Source: Brucella tritici | GTDB taxonomy: Bacteria > Pseudomonadota > Alphaproteobacteria > Rhizobiales > Rhizobiaceae | Assembly (NCBI RefSeq): GCF_902825325.1 | Contig: NZ_CADEAR010000001.1 | Span: forward strand, 186,001 to 250,000 | Direction of reading: 5' to 3' | DNA: 64,000 bases | Part shown: one piece after another, positions 27,620 to 33,394 of the stretch | Position numbering within the stretch: the first letter of the stretch is position 1 | How the letters are laid out: each line of letters begins with the position of its first letter | Program-made: the position numbers and the translations under genes | The notes under the pieces: generated by a model | Told to the model about the DNA's origin: nothing | The model's database searches: none | The model's input: the letters and a program-made list of their open reading frames with translations, nothing else

Positions 27620-27975
27620 ACTATCGTGACCTCTTCCCGTTTCACGAAAACGACGCGAAAAGCGCGTCGTCAATTTATCGATCCTAAATCCTACTGTTTT
27701 AGTTAGATTCCATTAAACAATCGCTCTTGTAAACCCTATATAGCCGTGATGTTCCCAGCATTAAGGGCCATTCTTTGAGGCCGCTCGGCTCAAAAACAAG
27801 GCCGAAAAGTAAACAGTAAAATCCAGTTAACTACGGATCGTTGACAGTGTGTTTCAGAAACGCGGGCTGGTTTCTGCGGTCTAGATGGCAATATTTCTAC
27901 CAGCATCATTCATCGGGTGTCTTGAAAATCCCAAGCTGGACATCCCGTCAGACCGCTGAAACACAGGACAGAGTA
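27620..27975. promoter_or_regulatory. Divergent promoter region with leader hairpin
   Basis: 356 bases between divergent starts. On minus, ACGACGCG-CTTTT-CGCGTCGT (27650-27670) is a perfect 8-bp stem followed by TTTCG, in the leader of the FAD protein; it looks like an attenuator or terminator. The rest is AT-rich and includes GTTAACT-like sequence near 27826. No regulator site could be assigned. Confidence 0.5.
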
Positions 27976-28575
27976 ATGAACAATTCCCTGCTGAATTCCA
28001 TCAAGAAGCGCCGCACTCAGTATGCTCTGGGCAAATCCCTTCCGCTGTCGAACGAAGACACGGCCGAGCTGATCCGTGAAGCGGTCAAGCACACACCTTC
28101 CTCCTTCAACTCGCAGAGCTCGCGCGCTGTAATCCTGTTTGGCGCCGAGAGTGACAAGCTGTGGAACATCGTGAAGGAAGCGCTTCGCCAGTTTGTCCCC
28201 GCCGACGCTTTTGCGCAGACGGAAGCCAAGATCGACAGCTTTGCTGCCGGTGCCGGTACGGTTCTGTTTTATGAAGACCAGACCGTTGTGAAAGGTCTTC
28301 AGGAAAACTTCCCGCTTTACGCCGACAACTTCCCAGTCTGGTCCGAACAGTCGGGCGGCATGGCACAGCACTCAGTCTGGAGCGCGCTCGCCAATGCAGG
28401 CATCGGAGCCAGCCTTCAGCACTACAACCCGCTGATCGATCAGGAAGTTGCCAAGACCTGGGATATTCCTGCATCGTGGAAACTTCGTGCACAGATGCCG
28501 TTCGGCTCGAACGAACAGCCTTTCCCCGAAAAGGCATTCATGGATGACGCCGACCGCTTCAAGGTGTTCTTCTAA
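27976..28575 (+). CDS. Nitroreductase-family protein (Frm2/Hbn1-like)
   Basis: 199-residue flavin reductase-like protein. It starts MNNSLLNSIKKRRTQYALGK, with the FMN-binding RRTQYAL motif. TPSSFNSQSSRAVILFG and HSVWSALANAGIGASLQHYN match the bacterial relatives of yeast Frm2, which lack part of the classical nitroreductase C-terminus. ATG 27976 follows CAGGACAGAGTA; the longer upstream frame is not protein-like. The substrate is unknown; links to lipid signalling or oxidative stress are known only for the yeast relatives. A terminator follows. Confidence 0.88.
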   Translation: MNNSLLNSIKKRRTQYALGKSLPLSNEDTAELIREAVKHTPSSFNSQSSRAVILFGAESDKLWNIVKEALRQFVPADAFAQTEAKIDSFAAGAGTVLFYEDQTVVKGLQENFPLYADNFPVWSEQSGGMAQHSVWSALANAGIGASLQHYNPLIDQEVAKTWDIPASWKLRAQMPFGSNEQPFPEKAFMDDADRFKVFF

Positions 28576-28593: not shown

Positions 28594-28629
28594 TGAAAAA
28601 GCCGGAGGAGAATTCCTTCGGCTTTTTCA
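28594..28629. terminator. Bidirectional terminator
   Basis: TGAAAAAGCCG (28594-28604) pairs with CGGCTTTTTCA (28619-28629). A/T-rich arms give T-runs in both directions. It separates the nitroreductase gene (plus) from the Anbu gene (minus), whose stop codon overlaps its right edge. Confidence 0.88.
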
Positions 28630-29367
28630 TTTTACCTCGTCGAAACTGAACGGCGGCAATTGTTCGAGTGCAGATTTCAGTGCTTCCGACCAGCTCTCCG
28701 ATACAGTCTGGTAATAGGGGTCGGTGGCTTCGAACCGTTTGCGGGCACCCATTTTGAAGCTATCTGCTTCGTAGATCTGCATATCGAGTGGCAATCCAAC
28801 GGACAGATTGGCTTTCAGCGTGGAGTCGAATGAGACAAGCAGCAGTTTCACCGCTTCCTCGAAACTCATCTGTTCCTGATACGCACGGACAAGAATGGGC
28901 TTGCCATATTTGTTTTCGCCAATCTGGAAGAAAGGCGTATCGGCCGAACTCTCGATGAAGTTACCCTCGGGATAGATATAGAAAAGCCGCGGCTGTCCGC
29001 CTCTGATCTGTCCGCCGAGAATGAATGAAGCGCCGAAAGCGTCAGCACTCTGCCCGCCAGTCGCGGAATTCTGGATCACTTCCTTGACGGTATCACCAAC
29101 GAGACGTGCAACCTGAAACATCGAAGGCGCATCGAAAACGGACGGATGTCTGTCTGCCGGAGCCTTCATACGTTCTTCCAGAAGGCTTGCGACGGCTTGC
29201 GTCGTCGCAAGATTTCCAGCCGAAAGCAGAACAATCACACGCTCACCGGGCTCAGACCAACTCCGCATCTTCGTAAAGATAGAAATATTGTCGAGCCCGG
29301 CATTCGTCCGCGTATCGGACATGAACACAAGGCCGCGATCGATTTTTATTCCAACGCAATAAGTCAT
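28627..29367 (-). CDS. Anbu proteasome-like peptidase (COG3484)
   Basis: Bacterial proteasome homologue of 246 residues, Ntn-hydrolase fold. ATG 29367 gives MTYCVGIKIDRGLVFMSDTR. After removal of Met, Thr1 is the expected nucleophile, Asp17 falls in MSDTRTNAG, and a lysine sits at 32 in FTKMRSW, close to the proteasome Lys33. VIVLLSAGNLATTQAVASLL is the conserved second strand and helix. No dedicated ATPase unfoldase is adjacent; instead it ends an operon with transglutaminase-like, alpha-E and ATP-grasp genes, a grouping known in many bacteria. Its natural substrates are not known. Confidence 0.92.
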   Translation of the reverse strand: MTYCVGIKIDRGLVFMSDTRTNAGLDNISIFTKMRSWSEPGERVIVLLSAGNLATTQAVASLLEERMKAPADRHPSVFDAPSMFQVARLVGDTVKEVIQNSATGGQSADAFGASFILGGQIRGGQPRLFYIYPEGNFIESSADTPFFQIGENKYGKPILVRAYQEQMSFEEAVKLLLVSFDSTLKANLSVGLPLDMQIYEADSFKMGARKRFEATDPYYQTVSESWSEALKSALEQLPPFSFDEVK

Positions 29368-29404
29368 AAGCAATATCCGGCAGGCAACTCACTATCCAGA
29401 AGGA

Positions 29405-30202
29405 TCACTGCCCTACATTGATGTGAACCGCAAGACTTTCCACCGTGCCGCCCAGACGAACCCCCGAAATCGGCGCTGCATCTCGGTAGTCGAGCCCGGT
29501 TGCAATCCGCACATAGCGATCATTCGGACAGACATTATTGGCGGCATCGAATCCGACCCATCCAAGACCGTCGATATGGGCTTCGGCCCAGGCATGGCTC
29601 GCGGTTTGTTCCTCCACGCCTTCCATCATCAGATATCCTGAGACATAACGCGCAGGAATGCCTATCAGCCGGACTGCTGAAAGGAATATATGCGTGTGAT
29701 CCTGACAAACGCCTTTCCCGGTTTCCAATGCGCTTTCGGCATCGGTTGAAACGCTCGTCGTTCCCGGCATATAGGCGACCGCCTTGTGGATGGTGTTCAT
29801 CAGATCGTGCATCAGGGCAAGCCGTTCCTGCCCGAGCGCGAGATCACCTGCCAGAGCCCTGACGCGTTCGCCAGGCGTGGTCAGCGGCGTCTCGCGCTCG
29901 AAAAGCCAGAGCGGAGCATAGCCATAGACAGGTCCCAATACGCCGACCCTGTCTTCCACATCGATACTGCCGCTGGCGGTTATGACAATCTCGCTGACAT
30001 TGCGGGCGTGCTGGACCAGATCAGTCTTGTTGCCGAAGCCGTCGACATAAGAAACCTCCGGCTCGCCACCTTCGATTTTCAGTTCCCAGTGCCTGACTAC
30101 CTGCCCCGGAACGGTTGGCGGACGCAGCCGCAACCTTTGCACCGCATAAGGAACCGGATGCTCATAGCGATAATGTGAAACGTGCCGGATGTTGAGCAGC
30201 AA
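29405..30202 (-). CDS. Transglutaminase-like cysteine protease family protein (COG1305)
   Basis: 265 residues. An N-terminal beta domain (LLNIRHVSHYRYEHPVPYAV) is followed by the transglutaminase core: catalytic Cys in ALETGKGVCQDHTHIF, His in TASHAWAEAHIDG and Asp in WVGFDAANNVCPNDRYVRIA, so the triad is complete. The start is TTG 30202 with TGAGGTC at good spacing on minus. It begins 9 bases after the alpha-E stop. In this context it may cleave or form amide bonds on a peptide built by the ATP-grasp partner; this role is inferred. Confidence 0.9.
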   Translation of the reverse strand: MLLNIRHVSHYRYEHPVPYAVQRLRLRPPTVPGQVVRHWELKIEGGEPEVSYVDGFGNKTDLVQHARNVSEIVITASGSIDVEDRVGVLGPVYGYAPLWLFERETPLTTPGERVRALAGDLALGQERLALMHDLMNTIHKAVAYMPGTTSVSTDAESALETGKGVCQDHTHIFLSAVRLIGIPARYVSGYLMMEGVEEQTASHAWAEAHIDGLGWVGFDAANNVCPNDRYVRIATGLDYRDAAPISGVRLGGTVESLAVHINVGQ

Positions 30203-30211
30203 GCGAAGACC

Positions 30212-31153
30212 TCAATAGAAATTATAGGTTTCAGCGATCTCGTTGCCGAGCCGGTTATTGCGGGTAATGAATTCGGTCAGGAATTCATGCAAGCCCACGT
30301 CGAAGATCGCGGATATGTCCTGATTTTGCAGGCTTGCATAGATTTCGTCCGCTGTCTCGTGGCAGGCAACACGATTGCCATAATCTTTCGACAGATAATC
30401 CAGATGTTCGGCGATGCTGCGATAGCAATAATGGAGTGAGCGCGGCATGCGGCCATTCAGGATCAGATAGTCCGCCACCTGCGCCGGACGGTAGTCACCG
30501 TCATAAACCCAGCGATAGGAACGATGTGCCGATACAGAGCGCAGGATCGATTCCCATTGATAATTGTCCAGCGTCGTACCGACATAGGAAATGGCAGGCA
30601 ACAGGACATAGTATTTCACATCGAGAATGCGGGCCGTGTTGTCGGCGCGCTCGATAAAAGTACCGAGGCTTGCAAAATCGAAGATTTCGTTGCGCAACAT
30701 CGTGCCATGGAAAGAGCCGCGAATGAGCGCAGTCTCGCGCTTGATCTGATCGAGAAGCTGCGGGAGATCACTTTCCTTCAACGGCCTGCACAACGATTTT
30801 TTGAGCGACATCCACGCTTCATTGACACTTTCCCACGCCTCGCGTGTCAGCGCCGTGCGCACCATGCGCGCATTGGAACGCGCGGTTTCAATGCAGGTCA
30901 TCACGCTTGACGGATTATCCGTATCGCGCAGCAGGAAATCCGCAACGTTGGCAGCGTTATAGACATCGTATTTAGCGGAAAAGCCCTGACTTGCACCCGC
31001 TGAAACCGCCACCGACGACCATTCCTCCGGTGCGTCAGACGTTTTCGTCAGTGCCATGCGAAGTCCCGCATCGACAAGGCGCGCCATGTTTTCGGCACGC
31101 TCTATATAGCGGAACATCCAGTAAAGTCCGTTTGCCGTACGGCCAAGAAGCAT
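30212..31153 (-). CDS. Alpha-E domain protein (COG2307)
   Basis: 313-residue mainly alpha-helical protein beginning MLLGRTANGLYWMFRYIERA, the standard start of this family, with conserved ERADNTARILDVKYYVLLP near residue 165 and helical repeats throughout. No catalytic residues are established for the family. It lies between the ATP-grasp gene (53 bases upstream) and the transglutaminase gene (9 bases downstream). Some organisms fuse alpha-E to the ATP-grasp protein, which suggests they form a complex. Confidence 0.92.
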   Translation of the reverse strand: MLLGRTANGLYWMFRYIERAENMARLVDAGLRMALTKTSDAPEEWSSVAVSAGASQGFSAKYDVYNAANVADFLLRDTDNPSSVMTCIETARSNARMVRTALTREAWESVNEAWMSLKKSLCRPLKESDLPQLLDQIKRETALIRGSFHGTMLRNEIFDFASLGTFIERADNTARILDVKYYVLLPAISYVGTTLDNYQWESILRSVSAHRSYRWVYDGDYRPAQVADYLILNGRMPRSLHYCYRSIAEHLDYLSKDYGNRVACHETADEIYASLQNQDISAIFDVGLHEFLTEFITRNNRLGNEIAETYNFY

Positions 31154-31206
31154 AAATCATTCCCCTTTTCGCGCCCTGATCTTGTCGTCAGTTGCAGCAC
31201 TTCAAT

Positions 31207-32619
31207 TCAATCGTCGAGCACCCACGTGTCCTTGGTTCCTCCGCCCTGGCTGGAATTCACGACAAGCGATCCCTCTTTCAATGCCACCCGTGTGAGCCCG
31301 CCGGGCGTTATGCGGATACGGTCGGAAACCAGAACAAAGGGGCGGAGATCGACATGGCGCGGCGCAAGCCCGCTCTCGGTGAAGATGGGCGTCGTTGACA
31401 GCGCAAGTGTGGGCTGCGCGATGTAATTGCGCGGCCTTGCCTTCAGTTTTTCCGCAAATGCATCGCGTTCGGCCTTCGTCGAGGCCGGTCCGACCAGCAT
31501 TCCATAGCCACCGGAGCCGTGTACCTCCTTGACGACAAGCTCGGCAAGATTGTCGAGCACATAAGCAAGGCTATCCGGTTCGGAACAACGCCAGGTCGGC
31601 ACGTTTTCGAGAATGGCCTTGCGGCCCGTATAGAACTCCACGATTTCCGGCATATAGGAATAGATCGCCTTGTCGTCGGCGATGCCGGTTCCGGGCGCAT
31701 TCGCGATCGTGATATTCCCTGCCCGGTAGACATCCATGATGCCGGCAACGCCAAGCGTCGAATCCGGCCTGAATGTCAGCGGGTCAAGAAACGCATCGTC
31801 CACACGCCGGTAGAGCACGTCGATAGCGCGATAACCTTGTGTGGTGCGCATAGCCACACGTCCGTCAACGACGCGCAGATCGCTTCCCTCGACCAGTTCG
31901 ACGCCCATCTGATCGGCAAGGAATGCGTGTTCGAAATAGGCGGAATTGTAAATGCCGGGCGTCAGCACCGCGACAGTCGGCACATCCTGCGTGCCGGGAG
32001 GCGCAACGCTTGCGAGCGACTGGCGCAGCAATTGCGGGTAATTCTCGACCGGGCGCACCTTGACGTTCTGGAACAGTTCGGGAAAGAGCTGCATCATCGT
32101 CTCGCGGTTTTCCAGCATATAGGAAACGCCGGACGGCGTACGGGCATTATCCTCCAGCACATAGAACTGGTTCTCAGCGGTGCGTACAATATCAACGCCG
32201 ATAATATGGGTGTAGACGTTGCCCGGAGGACGAAAACCGATCATTTCGGGCAAGAAGGCTTCATTCCTAAAAATCAGCTCTTTCGGAATGCGCCCTGCCC
32301 GGACGATCTCCTGTCGGTGATAAATGTCATCGAGGAAGGCATTGAGCGCCATGACGCGCTGTTCAATGCCCTGCGACAGGCGCCGCCATTCCTGCCCGGA
32401 AATGATGCGTGGGATGATATCAAAGGGGATGAGGCGCTCGCCCGCCTCCTGATCGCCATAGACAGCAAAAGTGATACCCGTCTTGCGGAAGACGCTTTCG
32501 GCGTCATCGCTTTTCTGTAGAAGTTTGTGCGGATCCTGTTGGTCGAGCCACTGCTTGAGAAATTCGTAAGGCTGGCGGACATTCCCGCCATGGTTGAGCA
32601 TCTCGTCAAATGGCTTCAC
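31207..32619 (-). CDS. Circularly permuted ATP-grasp protein (COG2308)
   Basis: 470-residue predicted amide-bond ligase. Family features: TFAVYGDQEAGERLIPFDII near residue 53, HIIGVDIVRTAENQFYVLED and NARTPSGVSYMLENRETMMQ near 140-170, VLTPGIYNSAYFEHAFLADQ near 220, and the nucleotide-binding glycine-rich EVHGSGGYGMLVGP near 368. The start is GTG 32619 with AGGGGA upstream on minus. It is the first gene of the Anbu operon. The ATP-grasp fold implies ATP-dependent carboxylate-amine ligation, but the product is unknown. Confidence 0.92.
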   Translation of the reverse strand: MKPFDEMLNHGGNVRQPYEFLKQWLDQQDPHKLLQKSDDAESVFRKTGITFAVYGDQEAGERLIPFDIIPRIISGQEWRRLSQGIEQRVMALNAFLDDIYHRQEIVRAGRIPKELIFRNEAFLPEMIGFRPPGNVYTHIIGVDIVRTAENQFYVLEDNARTPSGVSYMLENRETMMQLFPELFQNVKVRPVENYPQLLRQSLASVAPPGTQDVPTVAVLTPGIYNSAYFEHAFLADQMGVELVEGSDLRVVDGRVAMRTTQGYRAIDVLYRRVDDAFLDPLTFRPDSTLGVAGIMDVYRAGNITIANAPGTGIADDKAIYSYMPEIVEFYTGRKAILENVPTWRCSEPDSLAYVLDNLAELVVKEVHGSGGYGMLVGPASTKAERDAFAEKLKARPRNYIAQPTLALSTTPIFTESGLAPRHVDLRPFVLVSDRIRITPGGLTRVALKEGSLVVNSSQGGGTKDTWVLDD

Positions 32620-32775
32620 TTAATTCCCCTTCTTTTCCTTATTATTCAGTCCGGAATTAGGGAAAAGCAAGCACGGAAATCATGCAAAAGCGCAAAGCTG
32701 GGTTGCGCAGTTTCTTCGTGACAGATGATCTCAGGCGCGCTCTAATTCATCCGCCAATGCAATTTCGATGATGGT

Positions 32776-33297
32776 TCAGCCTGGCCGGTGGGCCTTTACG
32801 ACTGTCGGATCGGTATCGATGCGCCCGGCCCCGATCAGGTCAAGACAATAAGGCACCGCTGGAAAAATCGCCTGCAAGGTCATGGCAATCGAAGCAGGTT
32901 TGCCGGGAAGATTGAGGATGAAGCTCTTGCCGCGGCTGCCCGCCGTCTGGCGTGACAGAATGGCGGTCGGAGTCTGCTCAAGACTGACGCGGCGCATCAG
33001 TTCACCGAAGCCGGGCAGTTCCTTATGCAGAACCGCCTGCATGGCTTCCGGTGTTTCATCGCGCGGGCTCGGCCCTGTGCCGCCTGTTGTCAGGATCAGG
33101 TCGCAAGCTGCCTTGTCGCAAAGACCGATAAGCGTATCGCGCACCGATTCCATGCCATCGGGAATAACGCGACGAATGGTTTCGTAAGGCGTAACGACAG
33201 CGCCTTTTATCCATGCTTCCATAGCCGGGCCGCTCAGGTCTTCGTATTCCCCGCGACTTGCACGGTCGGAAACAGTCACGAAACCGATCTTTACCAT
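32776..33297 (-). CDS. mog: Molybdopterin adenylyltransferase
   Basis: 173-residue MogA/MoaB-fold enzyme that adenylates molybdopterin before molybdenum insertion in cofactor synthesis. Motifs: GFVTVSDRASRGEYEDLSGP at the N-terminus and the MPT-binding LTTGGTGPSPRDETPEAM near residue 70, then LPGKPASIAMTLQAIFPAVP. ATG 33297 is preferred over a GTG one codon earlier. It stands alone, with 156 bases to the ATP-grasp gene, and no other moa/moe gene is in the window. Confidence 0.93.
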   Translation of the reverse strand: MVKIGFVTVSDRASRGEYEDLSGPAMEAWIKGAVVTPYETIRRVIPDGMESVRDTLIGLCDKAACDLILTTGGTGPSPRDETPEAMQAVLHKELPGFGELMRRVSLEQTPTAILSRQTAGSRGKSFILNLPGKPASIAMTLQAIFPAVPYCLDLIGAGRIDTDPTVVKAHRPG

Positions 33298-33394
33298 CAC
33301 ACTCTCACAGTAAGTTTTTGGATTTCAGCAGACTTCGGGCGATCTTATAGGCGTTCGCCGGTATGATGTGAAGGTTTGTACACCGCAAATGAAA

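What the first reader, a model, noticed from the sequence alone, without database searches (positions are those of the whole stretch)
28627..32619. Complete four-gene Anbu / ATP-grasp / alpha-E / transglutaminase module
All four genes are intact, co-directional and tightly spaced (53, 9 and 37 bases). The Anbu protein keeps Thr1 and Asp17, plus a lysine at 32; the transglutaminase has its Cys-His-Asp triad; the ATP-grasp has its glycine-rich loop. Comparative genomics has linked these families as a predicted peptide tagging or amide-ligation and degradation pathway (named in work on amidoligases), but substrate and product remain unknown. No unfoldase is adjacent, so the peptidase may act on small or pre-tagged peptides. 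Having every component intact makes this a good test case.
Basis: partly seen in the sequence, partly recalled or inferred. Interest (0 to 1): 0.75.

Follow-up and report, generated by a model that had tools for sequence, protein, structure and literature searches.

The report
A known Anbu amide-ligase operon
This is an intact copy of a published four-gene bacterial operon of unknown function, and comparison across genomes suggests that its heart is a two-protein amide-making enzyme while the proteasome-like Anbu protein is an optional extra.

Summary
In detail: four intact, co-directional genes (CP-ATP-grasp, alpha-E, transglutaminase-like, Anbu) with gaps of 53, 9 and 37 bases. It is a published, widespread operon type. 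In this genus 31 of 35 genomes carry Anbu and alpha-E, 4 carry neither, and in those 4 the flanking genes are neighbours.

New here, by comparison. (1) CP-ATP-grasp and alpha-E are an obligate pair: all 182 alpha-E genomes among 349 Pseudomonadota have both. Anbu is optional: 118 of the 182, with at least 14 gains or losses on an alpha-E tree of 86 rows. Anbu rarely stands alone (2 of 120). (2) Alpha-E is an internal duplication (its halves match at 99.2%, E 5.5e-20). (3) In a sister protein fusing both domains, 8 of 8 copies lost the ATP-grasp glycine loop and lysine, but kept most of the alpha-E ER motifs.

Most likely mechanism (inferred): ATP-grasp plus alpha-E make an amide; transglutaminase and Anbu are separately dispensable enzymes that cleave or exchange it. 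Substrate unknown. "Complete pathway" overstates the case, since smaller versions are common. Bench work in this genus was referred; Pseudomonas putida KT2440 is the model proposed.

The parts
31207..32619 (-). Circularly permuted ATP-grasp ligase (PF14403/PF04174), first gene of the operon
   Evidence: solved relative 3n6x, E 2.4e-192
30212..31153 (-). Alpha-E protein (PF04168), two homologous all-helical halves, residues 1-144 and 150-313
   Evidence: duplication; predicted structure mean pLDDT 88.9, pTM 0.87
29405..30202 (-). Transglutaminase-like protein (PF08379 + PF01841), C166-H203-D219, TTG start
   Evidence: solved relative 3isr, E 1.8e-13
28627..29367 (-). Anbu, proteasome beta-like Ntn hydrolase; Thr1 directly after the initiator Met, D17, K32
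28596..28627 (.). Inverted repeat ending in a T run, directly after the Anbu stop and between convergent Anbu and nitroreductase genes: probable two-way terminator
   Evidence: read by eye; the terminator scan did not list it
32620..32775 (.). Gap between mog and the ATP-grasp gene, where the operon promoter would be expected
   Evidence: no sigma-70-like hit there and no sigma-54-like site
32776..33300 (-). Flank: mog, molybdopterin adenylyltransferase; marks one side of the insertion or deletion site
27841..28575 (+). Flank: nitroreductase-family gene; marks the other side of the site

Best explanation
It is a member of the published Anbu operon type. Most likely it works as an amide-making cassette with optional amide-breaking enzymes. 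Step 1 (inferred): the CP-ATP-grasp activates a carboxylate as an acyl phosphate and, with alpha-E holding or presenting the amine acceptor, forms an amide. These two are the obligate core. Step 2 (inferred): the transglutaminase-like protein and Anbu, each dispensable on its own, cleave or exchange that amide, so that the product can be undone or trimmed. Alpha-E is a two-repeat helical protein with one ER motif in each half. The likely setting is nitrogen limitation, shown in print for Pseudomonas and Burkholderia relatives but not for this genus. Shown here: intact genes, unit-like gain or loss in the genus, the obligate ATP-grasp/alpha-E pair, Anbu optionality, the alpha-E duplication. Not shown: any reaction, substrate or complex.
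For: ATP-grasp and alpha-E: all 182 alpha-E genomes of 349 have PF14403, and the five further PF14403 genomes have only weak matches, E 1.2e-7 to 3.6e-4. ATP-grasp lies directly upstream on the same strand for 130 of 137 alpha-E genes; 4 more are at locus edges, and in 3 the open frame of alpha-E runs into it (those three read in standard order). Anbu: 118 of 120 Anbu genomes have alpha-E, 64 alpha-E genomes lack Anbu; the Anbu label changes at least 14 times on the alpha-E tree, 11 of them forced by well supported branches. Module unity in the genus: 31 of 35 have both genes and 4 have neither, with mog and nitroreductase adjacent in those 4 and in G013, which carries the module elsewhere. 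Active sites are kept. The fused sister protein keeps E18, R19, R25, E168 and R169 in 8 of 8 while losing the glycine loop and Lys364; in the one case scanned it sits with a transglutaminase-DUF2126 'putative amidoligase'. Print, seen in passages: phosphate release from ATP by a Yersinia ATP-grasp of this operon (PMC6376114); inhibitor binding at Anbu Thr1 (PMC5666114); nitrogen-limitation or NtrC control (PMC5491218; PMC8050072; PMC7801951).
Against: No activity on tested peptides and no stable complex of Anbu with its operon partners were found (PMC6376114), and coexpression did not change Anbu (PMC5666114). The authors of PMC5666114 favour protein degradation over peptide synthesis. Two genomes keep an intact Anbu with no ATP-grasp, alpha-E or PF08379 match (G153, G359), so Anbu can have its own work. 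R175 of alpha-E is lost in 8 of 8 fused sister proteins. The co-occurrence counts are not corrected for kinship; the tree rows were chosen by me and the tree is a quick one.
Confidence: 0.55

Rival explanations
1. Protein tagging and degradation: the ATP-grasp and transglutaminase attach a tag to proteins and Anbu degrades the tagged proteins, like a small proteasome system.
For: Ring- or helix-forming Anbu with Thr1 that binds epoxomicin and MG132, and the authors' preference for degradation (PMC5666114); proposed in print (PMC6376114, citing Iyer 2009 and Valas and Bourne 2008, which I could not read).
Against: No unfoldase beside the operon; gaps of 53, 9 and 37 bases leave no room for a tag gene inside it (a tag elsewhere was not sought); 64 of 182 alpha-E genomes do without Anbu, so degradation by Anbu is not needed for the rest; no peptidase activity in print.
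Confidence: 0.15
2. Nitrogen scavenging: under nitrogen limitation the ligase joins a carrier acid to amines or peptides, and the transglutaminase and Anbu then release ammonia or amino acids, in the manner of glutamylated-polyamine catabolism (analogy recalled).
For: NtrC or nitrogen-limitation control in relatives; an amino-acid decarboxylase directly after Anbu in 13 loci and after the transglutaminase in 2 Anbu-less loci (Pfam family checked for 2 of them).
Against: The 15 loci are close relatives with other shared neighbours, so synteny may explain it; the window genome had no match to that decarboxylase (no positive control); no sigma-54-like site in front of this operon.
Confidence: 0.2
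3. Anbu is an independent hydrolase that merely rides with the operon, with no shared pathway.
For: Two genomes with Anbu alone; Anbu unlinked from the module in several loci; weaker induction of PP_2685 than of PP_2686 to PP_2688 in one P. putida study (1.1-4.8 against 11-37 fold; PMC7801951).
Against: 118 of 120 Anbu genomes have alpha-E; strong conservation of order; all-or-none loss in the genus; another P. putida study shows both ends of the operon induced alike (log2 4.44 and 3.99; PMC8050072).
Confidence: 0.1

Closest known systems
Anbu operon of Pseudomonas, Yersinia and others (PMC6376114, PMC5666114)
   Same: Same four families, same gene order, same Anbu catalytic residues; F30 and L52 of the S1 pocket as described for P. 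aeruginosa Anbu (for the paper, for the window).
   Different: No difference in composition found. No nitrogen-type promoter seen here.
Anbu-less three-gene module of close relatives (same family, e.g. L160-L164)
   Same: ATP-grasp, alpha-E and transglutaminase in the same order.
   Different: Anbu is absent from the genome.
Fused sister module: ATP-grasp-alpha-E fusion with transglutaminase and transglutaminase-DUF2126 (e.g. L080)
   Same: Same families; ER motifs largely kept.
   Different: The ATP-grasp glycine loop and Lys364 are lost in 8 of 8; R175 of alpha-E is lost in 8 of 8.
RimK/RimB of Pseudomonas (described in passages of PMC12239564)
   Same: Precedent for an ATP-grasp ligase paired with an enzyme that removes what it adds.
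   Different: RimB is a retropepsin-like aspartic peptidase; the window has no RimK or RimB family match among its four genes.

Membership tests
Anbu operon | ATP-grasp, alpha-E, transglutaminase-like, Anbu in this order on one strand | tested here: met
Anbu operon | Anbu Thr1 after the initiator Met, Asp17, Lys32 | tested here: met
   132 of 133 rows T1 (one Ser), 133 of 133 D17 and K32
Anbu operon | ATP-dependent activity of the ATP-grasp protein | not testable with these tools
   residues kept; activity published for Yersinia
Anbu operon | Induction under nitrogen limitation | tested here: inconclusive
   no sigma-54-like site upstream, 4 of 13 positions at best; no excess in 89 alpha-locus or 44 other upstream stretches; scan had no positive control
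Proteasome / HslUV-type ATP-dependent protease | AAA+ unfoldase partner in the operon | tested here: not met
   none among the four genes or the three flanking genes scanned; rest of genome not searched
Proteasome / HslUV-type ATP-dependent protease | Closed double-ring chamber | not testable with these tools
   published Anbu is an open split ring
Pup-like tagging system | Tag protein gene in the operon | tested here: not met
   gaps of 53, 9 and 37 bases; a tag elsewhere not sought
NIT nitrate-sensor domain (lead for alpha-E) | Fold or profile similarity | tested here: inconclusive

The most novel reading that the evidence does not exclude
Alpha-E is the true hub of a family of amide-forming machines: a duplicated two-site helical protein that presents an acceptor to interchangeable ligases. 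In the window's module the ligase is a live CP-ATP-grasp. In the fused sister module the attached ATP-grasp is dead and a transglutaminase-DUF2126 amidoligase supplies the chemistry. Anbu and the transglutaminase are optional erasers, so Anbu would be an amide de-conjugating enzyme rather than a proteasome.
Probability: 0.3. Interest if true: 0.65.

Novelty: already known. Interest (0 to 1): 0.4.

Why it matters
Anbu has been discussed as a proteasome ancestor for years with no substrate. If the ATP-grasp/alpha-E pair is the core and Anbu an optional eraser, the search for a substrate should start from what the pair makes, not from proteins that Anbu might degrade. That is directly testable in a laboratory strain. 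The alpha-E duplication and the dead-ATP-grasp sister protein give the first handle on what alpha-E does.

Tried and rejected
Fifth conserved neighbour: ORFs of 100 aa or more within 3.5 kb of the module in 157 loci, clustered greedily; the largest of the 26 clusters printed covers 23 loci, its representative has no Pfam match, and the next are 22-locus families dominated by alphaproteobacterial loci. None is general.

Sigma-54/NtrC promoter: no excess over shuffles in 89 alpha-locus and 44 other upstream stretches; the scan was not checked against a known site.

Profile search of alpha-E against solved structures: nothing better than E 0.13; single sequence: none up to E 1.

Literature: Iyer 2009 (PMC3268129) and Valas and Bourne 2008 (PMC3235984) are not held; I cite them only through other papers. 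Searches for alpha-E function or duplication listed nothing on it; this library holds open-licence papers only.

The control 92.4% (ATP-grasp pieces 161-320 against 310-470) is trivial: the pieces share residues 310-320 and 11 columns aligned. The other controls were at most 6.2%.

Full report
What is there. Four open reading frames on the minus strand, ATP-grasp 31207-32619, alpha-E 30212-31153, transglutaminase-like 29405-30202 and Anbu 28627-29367, separated by 53, 9 and 37 bases. Pfam assigns all four. Solved relatives exist for three: Anbu (5loy and others), ATP-grasp (3n6x), transglutaminase (3isr); none was found for alpha-E. Upstream on the same strand is mog, downstream and convergent a nitroreductase gene. 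An inverted repeat with a T run at 28596-28627 lies right after the Anbu stop; I read it by eye, and the scan did not list it. The genome has one match for each of PF14403, PF04168 and Anbu.

Whose genome. The nearest named loci are Ochrobactrum sp. RH2CCR150 and Brucella pseudogrignonensis (Anbu 91 and 89% identical). So the window is from the Brucella/Ochrobactrum genus; this is an inference.

One unit in the genus. Anbu and alpha-E are each found in 31 of 35 genus genomes, and the four without are the same: G004, G020, G025, G032. In all four, mog and nitroreductase are neighbours with nothing between. The same holds in G013, which carries the four genes elsewhere on the same contig (L033, L194). 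So the block was gained, lost or moved as a whole; which of these was not resolved. Two poor assemblies (G001, G006) have alpha-E in split frames. dN/dS medians are 0.034-0.099 for the four genes, 0.061 for mog and 0.127 for the nitroreductase (pairs with dS under 2).

What is essential and what is optional. In 349 Pseudomonadota genomes alpha-E occurs in 182, CP-ATP-grasp in 187 of which 5 are weak, and Anbu in 120. All 182 alpha-E genomes have ATP-grasp. 118 of 120 Anbu genomes have alpha-E, and 64 alpha-E genomes have no Anbu (Fisher p 1e-42, not corrected for kinship). The two exceptions, G153 and G359, have no PF14403 and no PF08379 match; their Anbu keeps its residues and lies near a folK-like gene and a short-chain dehydrogenase (names by eye). 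Seven genomes of the window's own family have alpha-E but no Anbu; in the five of these that I read, ATP-grasp, alpha-E and transglutaminase are in the usual order. On an alpha-E tree of 86 rows (20 from Anbu-less genomes; named loci thinned to one in three; quick method) presence of Anbu changes at least 14 times, 11 forced by starred branches; the label is still more clustered than in shuffles (mean 18.2; 2 of 500 as low). The transglutaminase is optional too: five Aurantimonadaceae loci lack it in the operon, though their genomes have PF08379 elsewhere, while G341 and G345 have ATP-grasp, alpha-E and Anbu and no PF08379 match.

Active sites. In 133 Anbu rows (not de-duplicated, selected by profile score) T1 is Thr in 132 and Ser in one (L149); D17, K32 and G50 are invariant. 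In 28 genus loci T1, D17, K32 and G50 are all kept. In 116 transglutaminase rows the Cys is kept in 112; three full-length rows have Pro, Ser or Ala with His and Asp kept, and one row is a fragment. In 135 ATP-grasp rows Lys364 is kept in 133 and the loop glycines in 131-132. The score and coverage cut-offs exclude degenerate copies such as the fused sister proteins.

A sister protein with a dead ligase. Eight loci have ATP-grasp and alpha-E fused in one frame (and L080). In 8 of 8 the glycine loop is gone and Lys364 is Leu or Arg, whereas R426 and D464 are kept. The alpha-E part keeps E18, R19, R25, E168 and R169 in 8 of 8, R15 in 7 of 8 and R175 in none (depends on the alignment). In L080 its neighbour is a 1156-residue transglutaminase-DUF2126 protein, DUF2126 being labelled a putative amidoligase; long transglutaminase frames sit beside several others, but their DUF2126 part was not scanned.

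Fifth neighbour. None is general among 157 loci. A pyridoxal-dependent decarboxylase follows Anbu in 13 Mesorhizobium-like loci and follows the transglutaminase in 2 Anbu-less loci (Pfam checked in 2). These are close relatives that share other neighbours, and the window genome gave no match.

What is in print (passages seen). The operon and its order, phosphate release by the Yersinia ATP-grasp, no peptidase activity and no stable complex: PMC6376114. Anbu split ring, inhibitor binding at Thr1, preference for degradation: PMC5666114. NtrC dependence of ATP-grasp, alpha-E and two transglutaminase genes in Burkholderia cenocepacia, no proteasome gene named: PMC5491218. P. putida: PP_2685 and PP_2688 induced alike on nitrate (PMC8050072), but PP_2685 only 1.1-4.8 fold against 11-37 fold for the other three in PMC7801951. 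RimK/RimB as a precedent for an ATP-grasp ligase with an eraser: PMC12239564.

Reading. The obligate pair makes an amide and the two optional enzymes act on it. This is an inference from who can be lost. It fits the ATPase result in print and the residues kept here. It is not proved by any reaction, and the failed pull-downs and peptidase assays in print count against a simple complex. The window's copy itself is an ordinary, healthy member of a known kind.

Noticed in passing
L080:9636-12092 (-), L136, L144, L147, L157, L168, L169, L175: Fused ATP-grasp-alpha-E sister proteins lost the ATP-grasp glycine loop and Lys364 in 8 of 8 but keep most ER-motif residues.
   Followed up: partly
L138 (6035-6775, -) and L139 (6258-7001, +): Orphan Anbu with intact T1, D17 and K32 in two genomes that have no ATP-grasp, alpha-E or PF08379 match, beside a folK-like gene.
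   Followed up: partly
L051-L068 (part), L083, L161, L162: Pyridoxal-dependent decarboxylase directly after Anbu in 13 loci and directly after the transglutaminase in 2 Anbu-less loci.
   Followed up: partly
L032, L038, L039: A solute-binding protein gene (SBP_bac_5; Pfam checked for L038) lies between Anbu and the nitroreductase on the opposite strand to Anbu in these three genus loci, and is absent from the window.
   Followed up: no
L024, L173, L177: Transglutaminase-like proteins whose catalytic Cys is Pro, Ser or Ala with His and Asp kept: possible pseudoenzymes.
   Followed up: no
L149:6042-6788 (+): An Anbu with Ser instead of Thr at position 1.
   Followed up: no
L194 and L033 (G013): The four-gene block is away from the mog-nitroreductase site, which is empty there: the block moves as a unit.
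   Followed up: partly
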